Assembly: GCA_030426955.1 (NCBI GenBank)
Contig: JAUHXS010000004.1
Span: forward strand, 248,001-312,000
DNA: 64,000 nucleotides
Direction: 5' to 3'
Origin: Bacteroidia bacterium
Lineage (GTDB): Bacteria; Bacteroidota; Bacteroidia; Chitinophagales; JAUHXS01
Position numbers and translations under genes: made by a program. Shown here in pieces: positions 37,911-64,000 of the stretch. The notes below the pieces were generated by a model, which saw only the letters and a list, made by a program, of their open reading frames with translations, was not told the origin of the DNA and did no database searches. Positions within the stretch are counted from its first letter, which is position 1. Each line of letters begins with the position of its first letter.

Positions 37911-40856
37911 CTAAGAATTTGCTTTATGCTTGGCTAGTGATTGATAAATCACATCTTGTATTCGTGTTCTCACATTAGTAGAAATCAAGGTGCGATTGTC
38001 TGCACTGGGGTGAACACGGTTGGATAAAAAGACATAAACTAGATTGTATTCTGGATCTGCCCAAACACAAGTTCCTGTAAATCCAGAATGACCAAAAGCT
38101 TTAGGAGAGGCGTAGATAGATGTTGGTCCTGGTTTAGAAGTGTCTGGCTCTGGTTTGTCAAACCCTAGTCCCCTTCGATTACTGGTTAATTGTTTTGAGG
38201 TAAATTCGCTAATAACCCCCGAGCTTAAATAATTTTGATAACCATAATCCCCTCTGTTCAACAACATTTGCATTAAAATTGCCAAGTCATTAGCATTAGA
38301 AAAAACACCTGCGTGACCTGCAACCCCACCCATCATCGCTGCTCCTTGATCGTGAACATAACCATGTATCAATTGTCTTCTAAACATAGAATCAGCCTCC
38401 GTGGGTACAATTCTAGACAAAGGAAACTTATTGATCGGATTATAAGTCATAGTAGATAATCCTAGTGGTGCATAAAAGGTAGCATTAACATATTGATCTA
38501 AGGGTTGTTCACTTAGCTGCTCAACTATATATTTATTAAAGTAAAAGCCTAAGTCACTATAGACATATCTCTTCTGTCTTCTCAAGTCTGAATCAACGAT
38601 AAACTTCCAAATACTATCCGTGTAGCTATTTTGAATGTATAATTCGTTAGCTACTTTTATTGAGTAATTATCGTTTGGAGCATAGCAGTAATGTTCATCG
38701 CAAAAGCCCTCCTCATTCAGTGTTTCTTGATAAAAAGGGATCCATGCTTTTAGTCCCGCTTGATGTAATAGCACATCACTAATTAAGATATTCTTTTTAT
38801 CCGTTCTCCTTAGATCTGGAATATAACGGGATATCTTTTTTTTTATTTTGAGCTTTTTATCATCTACTAACTTCATCATGGATATAGTAGTGGCCGATAT
38901 TTTAGTAATAGATGCTAGATCATAAATATCTGTATTTCTAACGGGTCGTTCATTTTCATAAGTATGAAAGCCGTATGATTTTTGAAAAAAGACTTTATTA
39001 TCTTTAGCAATCAATATCTGGCATCCTGGAGTTGCTTTTGCCCCTATTGCCTCCTCAACAATTGTGTCAATCGCCAATAGATCATCATAGTCAATTCCAA
39101 CCTCCTCGGGAATGGTATACTTTAAGCGTTGTGGCAAATCTCCTGTCAACCCAGTATTAAACTTAAACTTTGAAGTAGAAACAGGTAATCTGCCATTTGC
39201 TTGTATACCGCCAAATATTAGCTGCGCAGCGAGACTTTGGGTTATATCATTGTCTTCATAAGCAACAATAAGATGTTGTTGTTGCTCAAAAAACTTTAAA
39301 CTATACGGACTTCCAAATAGCACTACGATGGTATTAATTTGTTTCGACAGTTCATTGACAAAGCCAATGGTTTCCAACTCTAATCCATAGTCTCTTGAGG
39401 CATACCTGCTCATATCTTGTATCCCAATAATCACCAAGTTGAACTTTTTTGCTTCTTTTATAATCGCACTCATGGTCTGTGGAGACATATCTTTTTCAAC
39501 TCTGAAAATCTTCGTTGGCGCATATTGACTAATTGTCTCCTGAAACTTGCTTGCCTCATTTTTTCTATCACCAATAATAATAGAAGCAATTTTAAGTTTG
39601 TCTAGTTGCTTTATAGGCACTAAGTTCTTCTCATTATTTACCAACGTGATTGCTGACTCATATAGCTTCCTGTTGAGTAGCTCACCGTAAGGAGTGTGTA
39701 GCTCATATTGTAAGCTATCCGTTTTGATTGGTTTATAATTATTGAGTCCAGCCCAATATTTAGTCTGTAATATCTTTTTTACGCTCTTCAAAACAACCTC
39801 TTCTCGAATAATTCCATCTTCTATCGCCTCTCTAATTCTGCTAATTGCCGTAGGCACATCTTCCGGAAAAAGTAATACATCATTACCTGCAATGAGCGCC
39901 TCTAAATCAACTTCTCCAGGACCATAAAAACTACTAACCCCTCTCATATTTAATGCATCTGTAAATACCAGCCCTTCAAACCCCAACTTTTGCTTCAAAA
40001 GAGTATCAATAGCATTTTTTGATAATGATGTTGCTTTATTCGGGGTACTATCTATTGATGGAATAAATAAATGTGCTGCCATCATGCTCCCGACACCGCT
40101 TTTTATCATTTGCTTAAATGGATATAGTTCCAAAGAATCCAGTCTATTAAAAGAGTGAGTAATGGTAGGTAAGGTTTTATGCGAATCTTTATCGGTATCT
40201 CCATGACCGGGAAAATGTTTGGCACATGCCAGGACATAGCCATCTTGTAATCCTTTCATGTAGGCTATGCCTTTTGCGGCAACATTATTCATGTCTTCAC
40301 CAAAGGAACGGTCATTGATCACGGGATTATTAGGGTTGTTATTTACATCAACGACAGGAGCAAAATTAACATGAACGCCCATTTCTTTACATTGTCTTGC
40401 AATCTCTCTCCCCATTTGATAGATCAATTGATTATCCTTTATTGCTCCAAGCGTCAGCTGTCTAGGAAAGTTCATTGTGCTATCGAGACGCATACCCAAT
40501 CCCCATTCAGCATCCATCGCAATCAAAAGTGGAATTTTTGTTATTTCCTGATATCGATTAGTTAAATGAACTTGCTTCTTAGGTTGATCCTGAAAGAAAA
40601 TCAGTCCTCCGATGTGATGCTCTGTAATTAATGCTTCTATTTCCTTTTGGTGCTCAATACCCCGATTAGAATATGCTGCCACCATAAAAAGCTGACCTAT
40701 TTGTTCATCCAGTGAGAGTGTTCCCAGAATAGAATCCGCCCATTTTTCACCTTTTTTATCTTTCAAAAAAGGAGGAGTATGTTCTATTGGAGGATGAAAA
40801 GAAGATGAAACTATGAGCGTAACAACAACAGAAAATACTACAAAAATAGACTTCAT
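37911..40856 (-). CDS. beta-N-acetylhexosaminidase (GH3, NagZ-like) fused to a class C beta-lactamase-type serine hydrolase
   Basis: The 981-residue exported protein has a signal peptide of about 23 residues. The GH3 domain (about 35-400) carries the NagZ motif KHFPGHGDTDKDSHKTLP and the nucleophile region VFTDALNMRGVS. A GH3 C-terminal domain follows to about 560. The C-terminal third is a beta-lactamase/AmpH-type fold with the SxxK motif ASITK near 650, YSD in place of YxN, and HSGFTG as the third box. Such fusions are known in Bacteroidota and probably trim peptidoglycan sugars and peptides in the periplasm. It shares a transcript direction with the SPOR-domain protein 36 bases upstream. 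Confidence 0.92.
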   Translation of the reverse strand: MKSIFVVFSVVVTLIVSSSFHPPIEHTPPFLKDKKGEKWADSILGTLSLDEQIGQLFMVAAYSNRGIEHQKEIEALITEHHIGGLIFFQDQPKKQVHLTNRYQEITKIPLLIAMDAEWGLGMRLDSTMNFPRQLTLGAIKDNQLIYQMGREIARQCKEMGVHVNFAPVVDVNNNPNNPVINDRSFGEDMNNVAAKGIAYMKGLQDGYVLACAKHFPGHGDTDKDSHKTLPTITHSFNRLDSLELYPFKQMIKSGVGSMMAAHLFIPSIDSTPNKATSLSKNAIDTLLKQKLGFEGLVFTDALNMRGVSSFYGPGEVDLEALIAGNDVLLFPEDVPTAISRIREAIEDGIIREEVVLKSVKKILQTKYWAGLNNYKPIKTDSLQYELHTPYGELLNRKLYESAITLVNNEKNLVPIKQLDKLKIASIIIGDRKNEASKFQETISQYAPTKIFRVEKDMSPQTMSAIIKEAKKFNLVIIGIQDMSRYASRDYGLELETIGFVNELSKQINTIVVLFGSPYSLKFFEQQQHLIVAYEDNDITQSLAAQLIFGGIQANGRLPVSTSKFKFNTGLTGDLPQRLKYTIPEEVGIDYDDLLAIDTIVEEAIGAKATPGCQILIAKDNKVFFQKSYGFHTYENERPVRNTDIYDLASITKISATTISMMKLVDDKKLKIKKKISRYIPDLRRTDKKNILISDVLLHQAGLKAWIPFYQETLNEEGFCDEHYCYAPNDNYSIKVANELYIQNSYTDSIWKFIVDSDLRRQKRYVYSDLGFYFNKYIVEQLSEQPLDQYVNATFYAPLGLSTMTYNPINKFPLSRIVPTEADSMFRRQLIHGYVHDQGAAMMGGVAGHAGVFSNANDLAILMQMLLNRGDYGYQNYLSSGVISEFTSKQLTSNRRGLGFDKPEPDTSKPGPTSIYASPKAFGHSGFTGTCVWADPEYNLVYVFLSNRVHPSADNRTLISTNVRTRIQDVIYQSLAKHKANS

Positions 40857-56429: not shown

Positions 56430-57956
56430 ATGAGCAAAAAAATAAAATCAGCACTAATCTCAGTTTTTCACAAAGATGGATTAGAACCAATAGCCAGACT
56501 TCTTAACGAGCAAGGTGTAAAAATATACTCTACTGGAGGAACCCAGTCTTTTTTAGAAGAATTGAACATCAAACCTGTTGCAGTTGAAGATATTACCAGC
56601 TATCCATCTATACTAGGCGGACGTGTTAAAACTTTGCATCCCGCTGTTTTTGGTGGCATCTTAGCAAGAAGGGATGAAAAAAATGACATTGAACAGATCA
56701 ATGAATACAATATTCCAGAAATAGATCTCGTTATCGTTGACTTATACCCATTTGAGGCAACCGTTGCTTCAGGAGCTAGTGAGCAAGATATTATCGAAAA
56801 AATTGATATTGGTGGCATCAGCCTTATTAGGGCCACTGCCAAGAATTTTAAAGATACATTGATTGTTTCCTCAATGACTCAATATGGTGAGGTGCTTGAT
56901 ATTTTAAAGAATAATAACTGCGAAACAACGCTAGAACAAAGAAAGTCTTTTGCTGCGAAAGCTTTTGATATATCATCGCATTATGATTCAGCTATTTATA
57001 ATTACTTTTCAGAAGACCAAGAGGCTTCAGCATTAAAAATAAGTCACACTTCTTCTAAAACTTTGCGCTACGGTGAAAACCCCCATCAAAAAGGAGTGTT
57101 TTACGGTAATTTAGATGAACTATTCGACCAATTACACGGCAAAGAGCTATCTTATAATAACTTATTAGACGTTGATGCTGCTGTTAATCTAATAGGAGAC
57201 TTTTCTCAAGAGCAACTCGTATTTGCTATACTCAAACATAATAATGCTTGTGGTGTTGCCATTAGAACTTCTTTATTAGAAGCGTGGAAAGACGCTCTTG
57301 CTGGAGACCCAGTATCTGCTTTTGGTGGAATATTAATTACCAACACTACAATCGATACAGCAACTGCTGAAGAAGTTAACAAGCTATTTTGTGAAGTAGT
57401 CATTGCTCCAGATTATACGAATGAAGCATTGGAAATCTTAAAGTCAAAAAAGAATCGAATAATTCTTAAGCAAAAGCCTACTGTATTGCCTTCTATGCAA
57501 TACAGAAGTGCCTTAAATGGGATTCTAGCACAAGAAAAGGATTCTAAAGTAGATATACGCTCAGATTTTAAAACTGTCACTAAAAAAACTCCAACGGAGG
57601 AAGAATTATCTGATTTAGAATTTGCTAACGTTTTAGTAAAACATACTAAATCTAACACAATCGTTCTTGCAAAAAACAATCAATTGTTGGCAAGTGGAAC
57701 TGGGCAAACCTCAAGAGTTGACGCATTGAAGCAAGCTATTCACAAAGCCAAGTCTTTCAATTTTGATCTAAACGGTGCAGTAATGGCATCAGATGCTTTT
57801 TTCCCATTCCCTGATTGCGTGGAAATTGCTCATAATGAAGGAATCAACACAGTTATTCAACCAGGAGGATCAATAAAAGATCAAGAGTCAATTGACTATT
57901 GTGATAACAATGATGTGACTATGGTGATGACTGGGACACGTCATTTTAAGCACTAG
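56430..57956 (+). CDS. purH: bifunctional AICAR transformylase / IMP cyclohydrolase
   Basis: PurH carries out the last two steps of de novo IMP synthesis. The 508-residue protein has the MGS-like cyclohydrolase domain (ALISVFHKDGLEPIARLL, IYSTGGTQSFLEE, GGRVKTLHPAVFGGILARRD). The transformylase domain follows, with LRYGENPHQKGVFY, the catalytic KHNNACGVA, GDPVSAFGGI and the C-terminal DAFFPFPDCVE. The gene is complete. Its last 38 codons recur in diverged form 5.3 kb downstream, which marks this 3' end as a probable insertion or recombination point. Confidence 0.96.
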   Translation: MSKKIKSALISVFHKDGLEPIARLLNEQGVKIYSTGGTQSFLEELNIKPVAVEDITSYPSILGGRVKTLHPAVFGGILARRDEKNDIEQINEYNIPEIDLVIVDLYPFEATVASGASEQDIIEKIDIGGISLIRATAKNFKDTLIVSSMTQYGEVLDILKNNNCETTLEQRKSFAAKAFDISSHYDSAIYNYFSEDQEASALKISHTSSKTLRYGENPHQKGVFYGNLDELFDQLHGKELSYNNLLDVDAAVNLIGDFSQEQLVFAILKHNNACGVAIRTSLLEAWKDALAGDPVSAFGGILITNTTIDTATAEEVNKLFCEVVIAPDYTNEALEILKSKKNRIILKQKPTVLPSMQYRSALNGILAQEKDSKVDIRSDFKTVTKKTPTEEELSDLEFANVLVKHTKSNTIVLAKNNQLLASGTGQTSRVDALKQAIHKAKSFNFDLNGAVMASDAFFPFPDCVEIAHNEGINTVIQPGGSIKDQESIDYCDNNDVTMVMTGTRHFKH

Positions 57957-59480: not shown

Positions 59481-60095
59481 TTAAAAAGCTAGCCCAAAAT
59501 CAATATTGGTTTCCAAACCTACCTGCTCTCCAGACGGTCGGACAAAGTAGCCTGGTCCAAAATTGATGTCCATATATGCATATTTCCCTATGCGTCTTTG
59601 AATCCCATACAATACTGAGAAAATAGCTTTATAATTACTATTATTAACATGAAAGGAATGCTCTCCCTGCACCGATATATAATCTGCCGAAAAGTTATTT
59701 GCACTTTTCCCTTCATCAATCCTTTTATTTAAGTTATAATAATAGCGTGGCGCTATGACATAAAATGCCTGAAGGTCATCTCTTATGTCGGATACATCTT
59801 GTCTATTCCAGGAAAATAGACCCAATCCTCTTGTACCCACTTTTACCAACATTGAGAAGTTACTAACCACTTTCCTTTCGTATCCAAACTCAAGTCTATT
59901 AAAGGCTTTACTCCATAAATCAATTTTAATCAATTGAAGTTTCTCTTCCTGTGCTCGAACTAGGTAGTCGTATTTATATTTAAAACTAGTTGTATCCAAT
60001 TCTTCCTCTGAATATTCAGAGGATACACTATTCTGCGCAAAACTTAAACTGGCAAAAAAAACAATTATTACTGATAAATTAAAAACCTTATTCAT
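59481..60095 (-). CDS. outer-membrane beta-barrel-like protein
   Basis: The 204-residue protein has a signal peptide ending SLSFAQ and then alternating strands: LEFGYERKVVSNFSMLVKVG, QAFYVIAPRYYYNLNKR, AIFSVLYGIQRRIGKYAYMD, INFGPGYFVRPSG and a final NIDFGLAF. The C-terminal Phe is typical of barrels. It is not assignable to a named family by eye. Its start overlaps the stop of the DUF4097-like gene by 8 bases. Confidence 0.75.
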   Translation of the reverse strand: MNKVFNLSVIIVFFASLSFAQNSVSSEYSEEELDTTSFKYKYDYLVRAQEEKLQLIKIDLWSKAFNRLEFGYERKVVSNFSMLVKVGTRGLGLFSWNRQDVSDIRDDLQAFYVIAPRYYYNLNKRIDEGKSANNFSADYISVQGEHSFHVNNSNYKAIFSVLYGIQRRIGKYAYMDINFGPGYFVRPSGEQVGLETNIDFGLAF

Positions 60096-60990
60096 ATACT
60101 ATATTTAATATTTTAATCTCTCCAAACGAGTTTGAAATTTGTATCTCCTTTTCCCCATTTGTTTGAAATGTTTGTCTTGAATCATCAATAATCAATTTAT
60201 CCCTTAACTTATTGGGAACAGTTATATCTCCGTATTGATTAACAAAATCAAATCCAAACTCCGTCAGACTTCCTGTTTCTATTTGAATATCGGAACGTTT
60301 TGCTGTTATATTAATATTGGACACATCATTTAGAATTCCAAGTATAACATCCGCGTAGCTAAGGTTTGCGACAAACACCCCTCTGTGTTTATGCATTTCT
60401 ATTTTAGCATATTTGGCAGTACAATTAACATTTCCTGAGCAATTTCTCATAACAATATCCCCATATTTAGCAGTAATATCTATATCAGAAAGCAAATCAT
60501 TTAGATACAAATCTCCGTATGCCGCGTCCATAGTTAGGCTTCCCGATACCTTTTTTATAACTGTATTGCCATAATTATTGGTAATTTTAGCTTCCACTCC
60601 AATTGGTAAAAACACTTCATATTCCGCCCTTAGGTCTGCTTGAACACCATCTGTATTCTTCGGTAATACAAAAAAGTTCTTCAACTCAATAACATCATGC
60701 TCATCTTTAAGTATATATCGGCAATAATCAATCTCTCTATCAATAACCTCTCTGCTGTTATGTTTTGCAATCAGCTTTAATTGAACAACAACTAATTTCT
60801 TGGTCCATCCTGTTATATTAACCATTGCTTTCTCTCCTATGATTTCAATCCTTTGGTTTTGGTAAGGAAAGCTTTTGTCAATAGTTTTTGTCAACACTTT
60901 TACATTCTCTTGACCATGTCCCAATGATATGTAGCTTGCAAAGGCACAGATCAACCAAAGTTTATTATATTTTCTAATTACCTTTATCAT
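60088..60990 (-). CDS. exported adhesin-like repeat protein (DUF4097-type)
   Basis: The 300-residue protein has a signal peptide (to about SLGHG). A beta-helix-like repeat of about 20-22 residues per turn follows, marked by AAYGDLYLNDL, TAKYGDIVMRN, TAKYAKIEMHK, LSYADVILGIL, TAKRSDIQIET and NQYGDITVP. This layout is that of the putative-adhesin DUF4097 / head-GIN group. Its start overlaps the anti-sigma gene by 4 bases (ATGA), so it belongs to the same transcript. Confidence 0.8.
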   Translation of the reverse strand: MIKVIRKYNKLWLICAFASYISLGHGQENVKVLTKTIDKSFPYQNQRIEIIGEKAMVNITGWTKKLVVVQLKLIAKHNSREVIDREIDYCRYILKDEHDVIELKNFFVLPKNTDGVQADLRAEYEVFLPIGVEAKITNNYGNTVIKKVSGSLTMDAAYGDLYLNDLLSDIDITAKYGDIVMRNCSGNVNCTAKYAKIEMHKHRGVFVANLSYADVILGILNDVSNINITAKRSDIQIETGSLTEFGFDFVNQYGDITVPNKLRDKLIIDDSRQTFQTNGEKEIQISNSFGEIKILNIVYE

Positions 60991-61700
60991 CCTGCTAAAT
61001 ATTGAAATAGTTCTTTTGAAATTTCTACTCGTTCTTTTCTGATTCTTATTTGATATTTTAATAATTGATCGTTAGGCATTTTGCTTATTTCTTTTTTCAA
61101 CTCCTCTTCAGCCTGAGTTAAATCTTGATATTGCTGCATCAAATCTTTGAAGTATGGTTTTTCACACTGTAGTTGAACACTTGCACACTGATATTGAATA
61201 TAATCCAACAAATCAGCTTCTTCAGCTTCTTCACTTAATAGCACATTAGGCTTAACCTCTACTTTTTCGACATCATATTGTACAGTATAACCTTCAACGT
61301 TGGTTTTAATTGGATTAACAATCCAGAACAAACCGACTATCAGTAATATTGATGCAGCAATTCCTACAAACCACCGCTTATTTTCAAGCTGTAACCCTAT
61401 CTTTCGTGGATGTAACCGTTGCTGCATCTCTGTCCATACTTCTGGAGCCTGATAGTTTGGCAACTCACGGATAGCTATTCGCAATGCATCATAGTTTTCC
61501 TCCTCCCAAGTCTCGTGTCGTAACCTATTACTAAGCTTTTCCCAAACGTCCTTTCGTGGTTTTCGTTGCTCCATATCGGATAGTTCCGATGACATCTTAT
61601 TTTGTATCTTGCCTGAAATGAATTCCCAAGAACTTTCCTTCGGCATATATTCTGGCAAATGCTGAATTGCTTGACGTAGTATGTGTTTATTTTGTTCCAT
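60987..61700 (-). CDS. putative anti-sigma factor with one transmembrane helix
   Basis: The 237-residue protein has a cytoplasmic N-terminal part, one helix at about 110-129 (WFVGIAASILLIVGLFWIV) and a periplasmic C-terminal part. It directly follows the ECF sigma gene with a 1-base TAATG overlap, the standard position for an anti-sigma factor. I see no zinc-binding HxxxCxxC motif. The N-terminal part has an internal repeat: L-x-x-A-I-x-x-L-P-x-Y at 8-18 and 73-83, each followed by a P-x-x-x-W-x-x-(I/M)-x-x-(K/R)-(I/L) pattern, with a third half-copy at 48-60. The assignment rests on topology and position. Confidence 0.75.
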   Translation of the reverse strand: MEQNKHILRQAIQHLPEYMPKESSWEFISGKIQNKMSSELSDMEQRKPRKDVWEKLSNRLRHETWEEENYDALRIAIRELPNYQAPEVWTEMQQRLHPRKIGLQLENKRWFVGIAASILLIVGLFWIVNPIKTNVEGYTVQYDVEKVEVKPNVLLSEEAEEADLLDYIQYQCASVQLQCEKPYFKDLMQQYQDLTQAEEELKKEISKMPNDQLLKYQIRIRKERVEISKELFQYLAG

Positions 61701-62233
61701 TAATACATCAACTCTTTTAATTTACCTTGCAACATTTTTTTTGAATGGTACAATTGGGATTTAGAGGTTCCCTCCGAAATATCAAGCATATTGGCAACTT
61801 CCTTATGTGAGTATCCTTCTACCTCGATTAGCGTAAAAACAGCTCTATAACCTGTAGGCAACTCTTTAATCCCCTTTTCTAGATATTCTCCTGTAAGGTT
61901 TTCATCCCAAATTATTGGTTGATCATGCTGTTCATGATGTAAAACAACTGTTTCTCTTTGCTTTTTTATTTTGGCAAGTGCCGCTCTTACCACAATTGTT
62001 TTAATCCATGCACCTAATGTGGATTGCTTCTTAAATTTTGATAAGCTCTTAAATACTTCAATGAATCCATCTTGTAATACATCATGTGCTTCGTCATCAT
62101 CGTTCATCATCCTATAACATATCGTGTACATGGCATCTTTATATCTATCATACAAAGCCTTTTGCATTTCTGGCTTATTGTCTAAACATCCTGACAATAA
62201 TTCTTCTTCATATTTATCCAGCTTAAAGTCCAT
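61700..62233 (-). CDS. ECF-type RNA polymerase sigma factor
   Basis: The 177-residue protein has sigma region 2 (about 15-90: NKPEMQKALYDRYKDAMYTI, DEAHDVLQDGFIEVFKSLSK, TLGAWIKTIVVRAALAKIKK). Region 4 covers about 120-172 (LPTGYRAVFTLIEVEGYSH, EVANMLDISEGTSKSQLYHS). It should direct transcription of envelope genes when released by the membrane anti-sigma factor encoded next. It is the first gene of a seven-gene cluster with overlapping ends. A promoter-like module shared with the upstream lipoprotein gene ends 19 bases before its ATG. Confidence 0.93.
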   Translation of the reverse strand: MDFKLDKYEEELLSGCLDNKPEMQKALYDRYKDAMYTICYRMMNDDDEAHDVLQDGFIEVFKSLSKFKKQSTLGAWIKTIVVRAALAKIKKQRETVVLHHEQHDQPIIWDENLTGEYLEKGIKELPTGYRAVFTLIEVEGYSHKEVANMLDISEGTSKSQLYHSKKMLQGKLKELMY

Positions 62234-62252: not shown

Positions 62253-62284
62253 AAAGTGGTTTTAAGATTGCAAAAGGTTGTATG
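62253..62284 (-). promoter_or_regulatory. predicted ECF-type promoter of the sigma gene
   Basis: Reading on the minus strand: CATACAACC, 6 bases, AATCT, 6 bases, CACTTT, then 19 bases to the sigma gene ATG. The same module with the same spacings stands before the broken lipoprotein gene. CATACAACC would be the -35 element (AAC core) and CACTTT, after a 17-base spacer, the -10. Self-regulation by the ECF factor is inferred. Confidence 0.6.
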
Positions 62285-62297
62285 AGATATATAATTT

Positions 62298-62929
62298 TTA
62301 TTCGTAAACGTATCTTCCAGCACCTTGTAAAAACGTTTTATCACTGTGACTTAGCTCAGAATCTTCTATAATTAATTTATTTTGTGCCAATTCTACAATG
62401 TTCATATTTGCCACTTGTGCAAGATCAATTAACTCTTCAAATTTGACTCCATTTTCGTCTTCCAAAATCACTTTTTTCGTTGTAAAAACCAATTGATCTT
62501 TTCCATTTGTTGTCTCATTATCAATAAAACTCCATGAACCAGAAGCTTTCATAGTATAGTCTTCTAATTGACTACCAGGCAATGCTTTATATTCAATAGT
62601 AATGGTGTAGGTTTTATCATTATTAAGTTCCAATATTACTTAAGTAATACTCACGTGCTTCTTCAGTTGATGTAACTGCTTTATCATCTCTAGTTATTGT
62701 CACATAATTTACTGTTTCTATTGAACCATCATAGGTACCCTCTTTACTATAAGAAAATGAACCAAAATCATCAATCGATTCATTTTGAGGATCGTAAGTC
62801 CACTCGGAGGATATCATGATAAGATCTTTACAATTGCTCTTCTTTCATATCACTCGTAACAAGTTCATCCTTTTGGCAACTAAACAAAGCAATTGCTGTG
62901 AATAGACCGAATATAATTTGTCTTTTCAT
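62298..62929 (-). pseudogene. broken lipoprotein gene (two frameshifts)
   Basis: Three consecutive frames together make one lipoprotein. The first 33 codons encode a lipoprotein signal (IALFSCQKDE) and then stop at TAA. A second frame of 64 codons (SSEWTYDPQNESIDDFGSF) ends at REYYLSNIGT. The third frame continues with ELNNDKTYTITIEYKALPG to VYE. Removing one G from ATTGGAACTT would join the second and third frames as YLSNIELNNDK. The third frame has only a TTG to start from, and no RBS. I infer a recent pseudogene, or sequencing errors. It sits behind a promoter module shared with the ECF sigma gene. Confidence 0.75.
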
Positions 62930-62948
62930 TTTAAGGTTTAAATAACTT

Positions 62949-62980
62949 AAAGTGAATATTAGATTTGAAATGGTTGTATG
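62949..62980 (-). promoter_or_regulatory. predicted ECF-type promoter of the broken lipoprotein gene
   Basis: CATACAACC, 6 bases, AATCT, 6 bases, CACTTT, then 19 bases to the ATG of the lipoprotein signal. All 20 defined bases and all three spacings equal those before the ECF sigma gene, while the bases in between differ. Confidence 0.6.
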
Positions 62981-63185
62981 AAGGTTTATTTTTTAATATT
63001 TTCTATTACTTACATTCTAGATCGAAGTGTAAAGAACAATAGCTAAGTACATTTAGCCTCTAACTTTTTGTTCCTAAACTAGCGTTAACTTTTCATAACC
63101 AAAACAAATGGCACATCAGTATTAAATTGCCCGAAATTTAAATTCCTAAGAAGAATGATAATCTAGCACGAATCGTAAAAAAGTC
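62981..63185. other. intergenic stretch upstream of the broken lipoprotein gene
   Basis: About 200 AT-rich bases with stops in all frames. Nothing was recognised apart from a faint continuation of the purH similarity at its right end. Confidence 0.5.
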
Positions 63186-63299
63186 ATAAATACAGTTATT
63201 CAACCAGGTGACTCCATCAAAGATCAAGAATCAATCGATTATCGTGATAATAATGATATTATCATGGTGATGACTGGAACACGCCATTTTAAGCACTAG
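63186..63299 (+). pseudogene. diverged duplicate of the purH 3' end (38 codons)
   Basis: The 114 bases align without gaps to the last 38 codons of purH, including the TAG stop, with 96 identical bases. Fifteen codons differ, and eleven of these differences are synonymous (for example GAG/GAA, GAC/GAT, CGT/CGC). The four amino acid changes are Gly-Asp, Cys-Arg, Val-Ile and Thr-Ile. No start codon or upstream purH sequence is present. This is the pattern of a 3' end that evolved under selection in another genome and was brought in, as at the far end of an element inserted at purH. Confidence 0.9.
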
Positions 63300-63328: not shown

Positions 63329-64000
63329 TTAAAGTTGCAACACATTTAGCCCATCCTCATGCATATCTCTTGATGTTGGCATACCCACAAAAGAAAGCGG
63401 AAATTGAGGATATTCTTTTACGAAGCGTTTGTATTTGCTTTTTTTAATATTGCTGGCATCGTATTTTACTTCTAATGCATACCCTTGATCATTTTGCTCC
63501 TCAATCACAAAATCTACTTCACCTCCATTGGCTAACCGCCAGTAGTTAATATTTTCTAAGTAATGCTGATCTCTTAGAACTTGATAAACATAGTTCTCAA
63601 CTATCTGCCCTTGGTCCAGTCGATTATGCAAATCCTGAAAGTTATTTAGAATGGAATTCCTAAATCCTAAGTCGTTAAAGTATAACTTAGGCATTTTGGT
63701 TAATTCACTTCTAATGTTTTTATAATAGGGTCTAATTAACTCTACATGAAAGCATTTTTGTAGAATCATCGCATATCGATCTATCGTTTTGATATCTACA
63801 CCAAGTGTATTAGATAGTTCATGCTTATTTAACAAATTGCCAATCTGACTAGCAAGCAGTTTAAGTAAATTATAGAAGACAGACTCCTTATCAATTCCCG
63901 ATTCTAAAATATCCTTTTTTAGGTAGGATTGTGTTAATTCTCGCAATCTATCTATTTTATGCTCCAAGTTAGCTTCTAATACTACTGCAGGGTATCCGCC
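63329..64000 (-). CDS. DUF4143 domain ATPase (5' part cut by window edge)
   Basis: The visible 223 codons are the C-terminal part of an AAA_14/DUF4143 ATP-binding protein. The frame is open through the right edge (GGYPAVVLEANLEHK), so the true start and the P-loop domain lie outside; a TTG that could be read as a start is inside conserved sequence. Motifs seen are YLKKDIL, a winged-helix part (LSNTLGVDIKTIDRYAMIL), KLYFNDLGFRNSIL, and the nuclease-like GGEVDFVIEEQ with ALEVKY. Members are often accessory genes linked to mobile or defence regions, and their function is poorly known. It ends 29 bases after the purH remnant. Confidence 0.88.
   Translation of the reverse strand, partial: GGYPAVVLEANLEHKIDRLRELTQSYLKKDILESGIDKESVFYNLLKLLASQIGNLLNKHELSNTLGVDIKTIDRYAMILQKCFHVELIRPYYKNIRSELTKMPKLYFNDLGFRNSILNNFQDLHNRLDQGQIVENYVYQVLRDQHYLENINYWRLANGGEVDFVIEEQNDQGYALEVKYDASNIKKSKYKRFVKEYPQFPLSFVGMPTSRDMHEDGLNVLQL

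What the first reader, a model, noticed from the sequence alone, without database searches (positions are those of the whole stretch)
62253..62980. Identical promoter-like module before the ECF sigma gene and the broken lipoprotein gene
CATACAACC-N6-AATCT-N6-CACTTT followed by exactly 19 bases to the ATG occurs twice on the minus strand. All 20 defined bases and all spacings agree while the flanks differ. A 17-base gap between an AACC-type -35 and CACTTT fits an ECF promoter, so the sigma factor probably drives itself and the lipoprotein gene. It would give a ready-made motif for finding the regulon.
Basis: partly seen in the sequence, partly recalled or inferred. Interest (0 to 1): 0.66.

Follow-up and report, generated by a model that had tools for sequence, protein, structure and literature searches.

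The report
Self-driven envelope sigma factor promoter
The repeated DNA module is very probably the switch-on site of a bacterial stress sigma factor; the same site precedes that sigma gene in about 80 related species, and in many of them also the genes that build the outer membrane, so it looks like an independent counterpart of E. coli's sigma-E system.

Summary
Observation confirmed. CATACAACC-N6-AATCT-N6-CACTTT occurs exactly twice, each 19 bases before an ATG, and nowhere else in the 3.4 Mb genome at up to 3 mismatches. Interpretation largely supported, with one trim: AATCT is not part of it. The conserved core is ATACAACC(TTT)-N17-C[TAC]C[TC]TT.

78 of 82 orthologous ECF genes (45% identity or more) carry this core upstream, against 3 of 324 control windows and 4 of 34 more distant ECF genes. 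A matrix made only from other species ranks the two window sites first and second in the window; a related profile ranks them first and second in the whole genome. Motif-bearing sigma factors fall in one strongly supported clade.

In the window's own genome the detectable regulon is only the sigma operon and the broken lipoprotein gene; its bamA lies in an uppS-bamA operon without a site. No transcription start has been mapped, so promoter function is inferred from conservation.

The parts
62253..62284 (-). Promoter-like site of the ECF operon: -35 ATACAACC (62276-62283), 17-base spacer, -10 CACTTT (62253-62258); 19 bases to ATG
   Evidence: Exact match; top score in the window with a matrix from other species, 26.9 bits; top in the whole genome with profile R1, E 4.8e-4
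62949..62980 (-). Promoter-like site of the broken lipoprotein gene: -35 ATACAACC (62972-62979), 17-base spacer, -10 CACTTT (62949-62954); 19 bases to ATG
   Evidence: Exact match; second in the window, 25.5 bits, and second in the genome, E 6.4e-4
61700..62233 (-). ECF sigma factor, 177 aa, with regions 2 and 4
   Evidence: PF04542 3.4e-15 and PF08281 2.7e-15, both above cut-off; 82 orthologs at 45% identity or more
60987..61700 (-). Putative anti-sigma factor, 237 aa: repeats of the type LP.Y.P...W..I...L, one membrane helix at about residues 109-128, C-terminal domain; start overlaps the sigma stop
   Evidence: No Pfam or NCBIfam assignment above cut-off; tblastn hits in 46 ortholog loci, and a protein with a hydrophobic segment directly next to the sigma gene in 56 of 67 loci. 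Role inferred from position and topology
60088..60990 (-). DUF4097 ('toastrack') protein, 300 aa, third gene of the operon
   Evidence: PF13349 2.1e-8; homologs in 71 ortholog loci
59481..60095 (-). Probable secreted outer-membrane-type protein, 204 aa, fourth gene
   Evidence: Signal-peptide-like N-terminus read from sequence; homologs in four ortholog loci: L063, L064, L095, L096
62298..62929 (-). Broken lipoprotein gene: signal peptide with lipobox (LFSC), then pieces in two other frames (two frameshifts)
   Evidence: Translation and ORF list; weak DUF5004 match 0.015, below cut-off; no homolog in 298 other genomes of the order

Best explanation
The two modules are promoters read by RNA polymerase carrying the ECF sigma factor encoded at 61700-62233. 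The sigma factor drives its own operon (sigma, membrane-bound anti-sigma, DUF4097 protein, outer-membrane-type protein) and the neighbouring lipoprotein gene, now broken. The anti-sigma factor presumably holds the sigma factor at the inner membrane until an envelope signal releases it, after which the loop amplifies itself. In related Bacteroidia the same sigma clade and promoter also drive outer-membrane assembly genes (bamA, bamD, SurA-like PPIase, skp, degP, lptF/G), so the system works like enterobacterial sigma-E. Shown by sequence: the sites, their conservation, clade specificity and target genes. Inferred: transcription from them, recognition by this sigma factor, anti-sigma action and the envelope signal.
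For: Site found upstream of 78 of 82 orthologs against 3 of 324 control windows and 4 of 34 distant ECF genes; of 37 orthologs not used to build the matrix, window included, 33 carry it. Strict form 47 of 82 against shuffle mean 0.29, maximum 3. Window sites rank 1 and 2 with a matrix made without them and with profile R1 over the whole genome. Motif-bearing sigma factors form one clade, 79 of 83 rows, support 100/99; the other side has 3 of 33. Exact motif in 80 ortholog-bearing genomes precedes bamA, bamD, PPIase lipoprotein, ompH, degP and lptF/G, identities checked with Pfam and NCBIfam. A matrix made from sigma-gene sites alone finds bamA-upstream sites of 14 bits or more in 17 of 38 ortholog-bearing genomes and 0 of 25 others, p 3e-6. 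The operon with the membrane protein and DUF4097 is conserved.
Against: No transcription start or sigma binding was measured. In the window's own genome no further site is found: the seven weaker profile hits all lie in coding sequence, and its bamA has no site, so the outer-membrane regulon is shown only in relatives, nearly all in one family (f18). The bamA contrast between genomes is partly confounded with phylogeny, since most comparison genomes are from other families; two tested f18 genomes without a close ortholog also lack the site. The lipoprotein gene is broken and has no homolog, so its value as a target is unknown.
Confidence: 0.88

Rival explanations
1. The module is the binding site of a conventional transcription factor rather than a promoter; the ECF operon and envelope genes are its targets.
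For: A conserved two-block motif at variable distance from starts could be a bipartite operator; no start sites are mapped.
Against: The AAC-type -35, spacer of 17 or 18 bases and position a few tens of bases before starts are ECF promoter geometry; presence tracks the ECF clade itself; no inverted or direct symmetry in the core.
Confidence: 0.07
2. The module is an ECF promoter but is read mainly by another of the genome's ECF sigma factors.
For: The genome has 10 ECF-type matches; ECF regulons can overlap, as PMC9723704 notes for Flavobacterium psychrophilum.
Against: The motif sits before this clade's own genes in 78 of 82 cases and before few other ECF genes (4 of 34), several of which show GCAAC...CGTC-type upstreams instead.
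Confidence: 0.06
3. The match of the two window sites is a local copy or coincidence without function.
For: The lipoprotein gene downstream of one copy is broken, and the sites are only 700 bases apart.
Against: Flanks and spacers differ; chance expectation 0.01; the core is conserved across many genera and several families.
Confidence: 0.02

Closest known systems
Enterobacterial sigma-E (RpoE-RseA) envelope stress response
   Same: ECF sigma factor with membrane-bound partner, own operon as target, and in relatives the same target classes: bamA, bamD, skp, SurA-type PPIase, degP (sigma-E control of the BAM genes and of periplasmic chaperones and proteases: PMC6737893); lptF/G as an LPS-transport gene here
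   Different: Different promoter sequence (ATACAACC-N17-CNCTTT); partner protein without detectable family match; in the window's own genome the BAM genes are not visibly included
ECF21 sigma (Das) and dual membrane-spanning anti-sigma (Dma) of Bacteroides thetaiotaomicron
   Same: Bacteroidota ECF sigma next to an anti-sigma gene, linked to outer-membrane physiology (PMC13088901)
   Different: Dma proteins carry a tether and C-terminal beta-barrel; here the neighbour is 237 aa with one membrane helix and little room for a barrel, and a separate outer-membrane-type protein is encoded further down
Flavobacterium psychrophilum SM6 promoters (ECF type)
   Same: Computed ECF promoter class of a Bacteroidota species, including one sigma/anti-sigma gene pair among its targets (PMC9723704)
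   Different: SM6 has a CGT box at -10 and targets type IX secretion genes; here the -10 is CNC[TC]TT and targets are outer-membrane assembly genes
Bacteroidota sigma-A promoters (TAnnTTTG)
   Same: Lies close before start codons
   Different: The -7 box TAnnTTTG is not present in the conserved core

Membership tests
ECF (group 4) sigma factor | Sigma regions 2 and 4 only, small protein | tested here: met
   177 aa; PF04542 and PF08281 above cut-off
ECF (group 4) sigma factor | Conserved promoter-like site with AAC-type -35 before its own gene (sequence test of autoregulation) | tested here: met
   Conserved CAACC box upstream in 78 of 82 orthologs; actual transcription not measured
ECF (group 4) sigma factor | Cognate membrane anti-sigma factor encoded next door | tested here: inconclusive
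   Conserved adjacent gene with one hydrophobic segment in 56 of 67 loci, but no anti-sigma family match
Sigma-E-type outer-membrane stress regulon | Promoter-like sites before bamA, bamD, skp, surA-type and degP genes, in relatives | tested here: met
   skp and degP one genome each by exact pattern; the PPIase match is weak (Rotamase_2, below cut-off)
Sigma-E-type outer-membrane stress regulon | The same in the window's own genome | tested here: not met
   Only two non-coding sites; bamA locus without a site
Sigma-E-type outer-membrane stress regulon | Activation by unfolded outer-membrane proteins through regulated proteolysis | not testable with these tools
   Needs experiments
ECF21-Dma system | Anti-sigma protein with C-terminal beta-barrel | tested here: not met
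   237 aa with membrane helix at about 109-128 leaves about 110 residues; no structure predicted
F. psychrophilum SM6 promoter class | CGT box at -10 | tested here: not met
   C[TAC]C[TC]TT in 47 sites, no G at the second position

The most novel reading that the evidence does not exclude
A previously undescribed Bacteroidota sigma/anti-sigma system with its own promoter code has independently taken over control of outer-membrane assembly (BamA, BamD, SurA-like, Skp, DegP, LptF/G), the same gene set that sigma-E governs in Enterobacteria, while the window's lineage has kept only the self-activating core.
Probability: 0.6. Interest if true: 0.78.

Novelty: new variant of a known kind. Interest (0 to 1): 0.64.

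Why it matters
How Bacteroidota match outer-membrane assembly to damage is poorly known, and the papers found here tie their ECF factors to type IX secretion, vesicles, polysaccharide loci or oxidative stress. A simple motif that predicts a sigma-E-like regulon over many genera makes the question directly testable in cultured relatives, points to a candidate new anti-sigma protein family (LP.Y.P..W repeats), and gives a case of a similar regulon built twice with different promoter codes.

Tried and rejected
AATCT as a third element: rejected, no preference in other species. A wider regulon in the own genome by loose pattern: rejected, 127 hits against 165 for the reversed control at up to 2 mismatches; one-mismatch hits checked lie in coding sequence. 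Third window hit at 40145-40181 minus (16.4 bits): rejected, within the range of simulated maxima and opposite to a 737-aa frame. Exact hits inside coding frames of one genus, g49 (L235, L237, L239, L242-L244): rejected as conserved coding sequence. Lipoprotein relatives: none in 298 other genomes. The protein scan of named genomes gave only two relatives, though one, Rhodocytophaga aerolata, has the site. Structure prediction was not used. Literature searches for a Bacteroidota sigma-E controlling BAM genes found none; the library lacks most subscription papers, and the main ECF classification paper did not turn up in it.

Full report
The observation. The module CATACAACC-N6-AATCT-N6-CACTTT is present exactly twice on the minus strand, at 62253-62284 and 62949-62980, each 19 bases before an ATG. 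Dinucleotide shuffles of the window give 0.01 expected matches at up to 3 mismatches, and the whole 3.4 Mb genome (23 contigs, 97.4% complete) holds no other copy at that tolerance.

What lies around it. The first site precedes a 177-aa ECF sigma gene (regions 2 and 4 above Pfam cut-offs). The next gene overlaps it and encodes a 237-aa protein with one strongly hydrophobic segment at about residues 109-128, then follow a DUF4097 protein and an outer-membrane-type protein. The second site precedes a lipoprotein gene broken by frameshifts, without homologs in 298 other genomes of the order.

Conservation. Upstream regions of 82 ECF orthologs at 45% identity or more, from two searches of about 400 genomes each and fetched stretches, were compared. 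A strict form CAAC[CG]-N17-CNC[CT]T stands within 130 bases of 47 of them, against a mean of 0.29 and a maximum of 3 in shuffles, and 6 of 1959 other windows in the same loci. With a weight matrix and a spacer allowed to vary, 78 of 82 have a site of 10 bits or more, against 3 of 324 control windows and 4 of 34 ECF genes below 45% identity; the spacer is 17 in 59 cases and 18 in 17. Part of this set trained the matrix; of the 37 that did not (window included), 33 carry the site. The consensus is ATACAACC, often followed by TTT, 17 bases from AACC to C[TAC]C[TC]TT, then usually A, with an A-rich stretch 5 to 8 bases further that would suit a start site. AATCT falls in the unconserved spacer.

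Independent ranking of the window sites. A matrix built from 45 sites of other species gives the two window sites 26.9 and 25.5 bits; the third best in the window has 16.4, within the range of simulated maxima. A sequence profile (R1) built from 51 sites of other species ranks them first and second in the whole genome (E 4.8e-4 and 6.4e-4); the seven weaker hits lie in coding frames.

Clade. In a tree of 116 ECF proteins, 79 of the 82 motif-bearing ones fall in one group of 83 rows separated by a branch with support 100/99. Some more distant ECF genes show GCAAC...CGTC-type upstream sequences instead (by eye).

Targets in relatives. In 80 ortholog-bearing genomes the exact pattern ATACAACC-N17-CNC[CT]TT was searched, and the non-sigma sites were read. 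Sites stand before bamA in 17 genomes (two of them near-identical to a third), bamD in 4, a PPIase-type lipoprotein in 3, and one each before ompH/skp, degP, lptF/G and a TonB-dependent receptor, the last from a slightly different exact pattern. BamD and DegP pass NCBIfam cut-offs; OmpH, LptF_LptG, YfiO and POTRA pass Pfam cut-offs; the PPIase match is below cut-off. In a gene-first test, the matrix from sigma-gene sites alone scored the region before bamA: 17 of 38 ortholog-bearing genomes reach 14 bits, 0 of 25 others, Mann-Whitney p 3e-6. Nearly all positives belong to one family (f18), so phylogeny is a partial confounder. Genomes without a close ortholog gave few exact hits, and those read look like chance hits in coding frames. 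Profile R1 at E up to 0.1 gave 66 matches in the 40 ortholog-bearing genomes and 10 in the 40 others, a contrast that is partly circular because the profile was trained on many of the former.

The own genome. Its bamA starts a few bases after uppS and has no site in 12 kb around it. The detectable regulon here is thus the sigma operon and the broken lipoprotein gene.

Mechanism. Best supported is an autoregulated ECF promoter. By analogy with known sigma/anti-sigma pairs, the membrane protein with LP.Y.P...W repeats, conserved next to the sigma gene, would hold the sigma factor until an envelope signal frees it. The sites, their conservation and their target genes are shown; transcription, recognition, anti-sigma action and signal are inferred.

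Comparison with the known. Enterobacterial sigma-E controls all BAM genes and periplasmic chaperones and proteases (PMC6737893). In Bacteroidota, ECF21-Dma pairs affect vesicles (PMC13088901); an ECF promoter class with a CGT box serves type IX secretion in F. psychrophilum, where envelope stress genes were assigned to sigma-54 promoters (PMC9723704); and B. thetaiotaomicron ECF factors serve stress and polysaccharide loci (PMC12596196). None of the papers found describes this promoter or a sigma-E-like BAM regulon in the phylum; the library is incomplete, so novelty is probable, not proven.

Noticed in passing
window 63173-63299 (+): Remnant of a second copy of the 3' end of purH (gene at 56430-57956): 127 bases, 82% identical to the last part of purH, ending in the same GTRHFKH-stop.
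   Followed up: partly
window 60987-61700 (-) and ortholog loci such as L063, L065, L071: A conserved family without Pfam or NCBIfam name next to the sigma gene: N-terminal repeats LP.Y.P...W..I...L, one membrane helix, C-terminal domain; candidate new anti-sigma family.
   Followed up: partly
L294, L295 (G031, G044, family f18): Genomes of the same family without a close ortholog show TGCAACAC...CGTT-type sequence before bamA instead of ATACAACC...CNCTTT; possible switch of promoter code together with the sigma factor.
   Followed up: no
L029 (G011) upstream of the ECF gene: A more distant ECF (40% identity) outside the main clade has ATACAACCTTTTT...CCACT upstream, and its genome gives three profile hits: possible second lineage with this promoter.
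   Followed up: no
L170 (G334): An exact motif copy 92 bases before a possible start of ruvA and 47 before an in-frame upstream TTG. From memory, ruvA often neighbours the type IX secretion gene sprA in this phylum; not checked here.
   Followed up: no
window 63329-63967 (-): DUF4143 part of an AAA-type ATPase gene (PF13635, 3.4e-37) running towards the window end.
   Followed up: no
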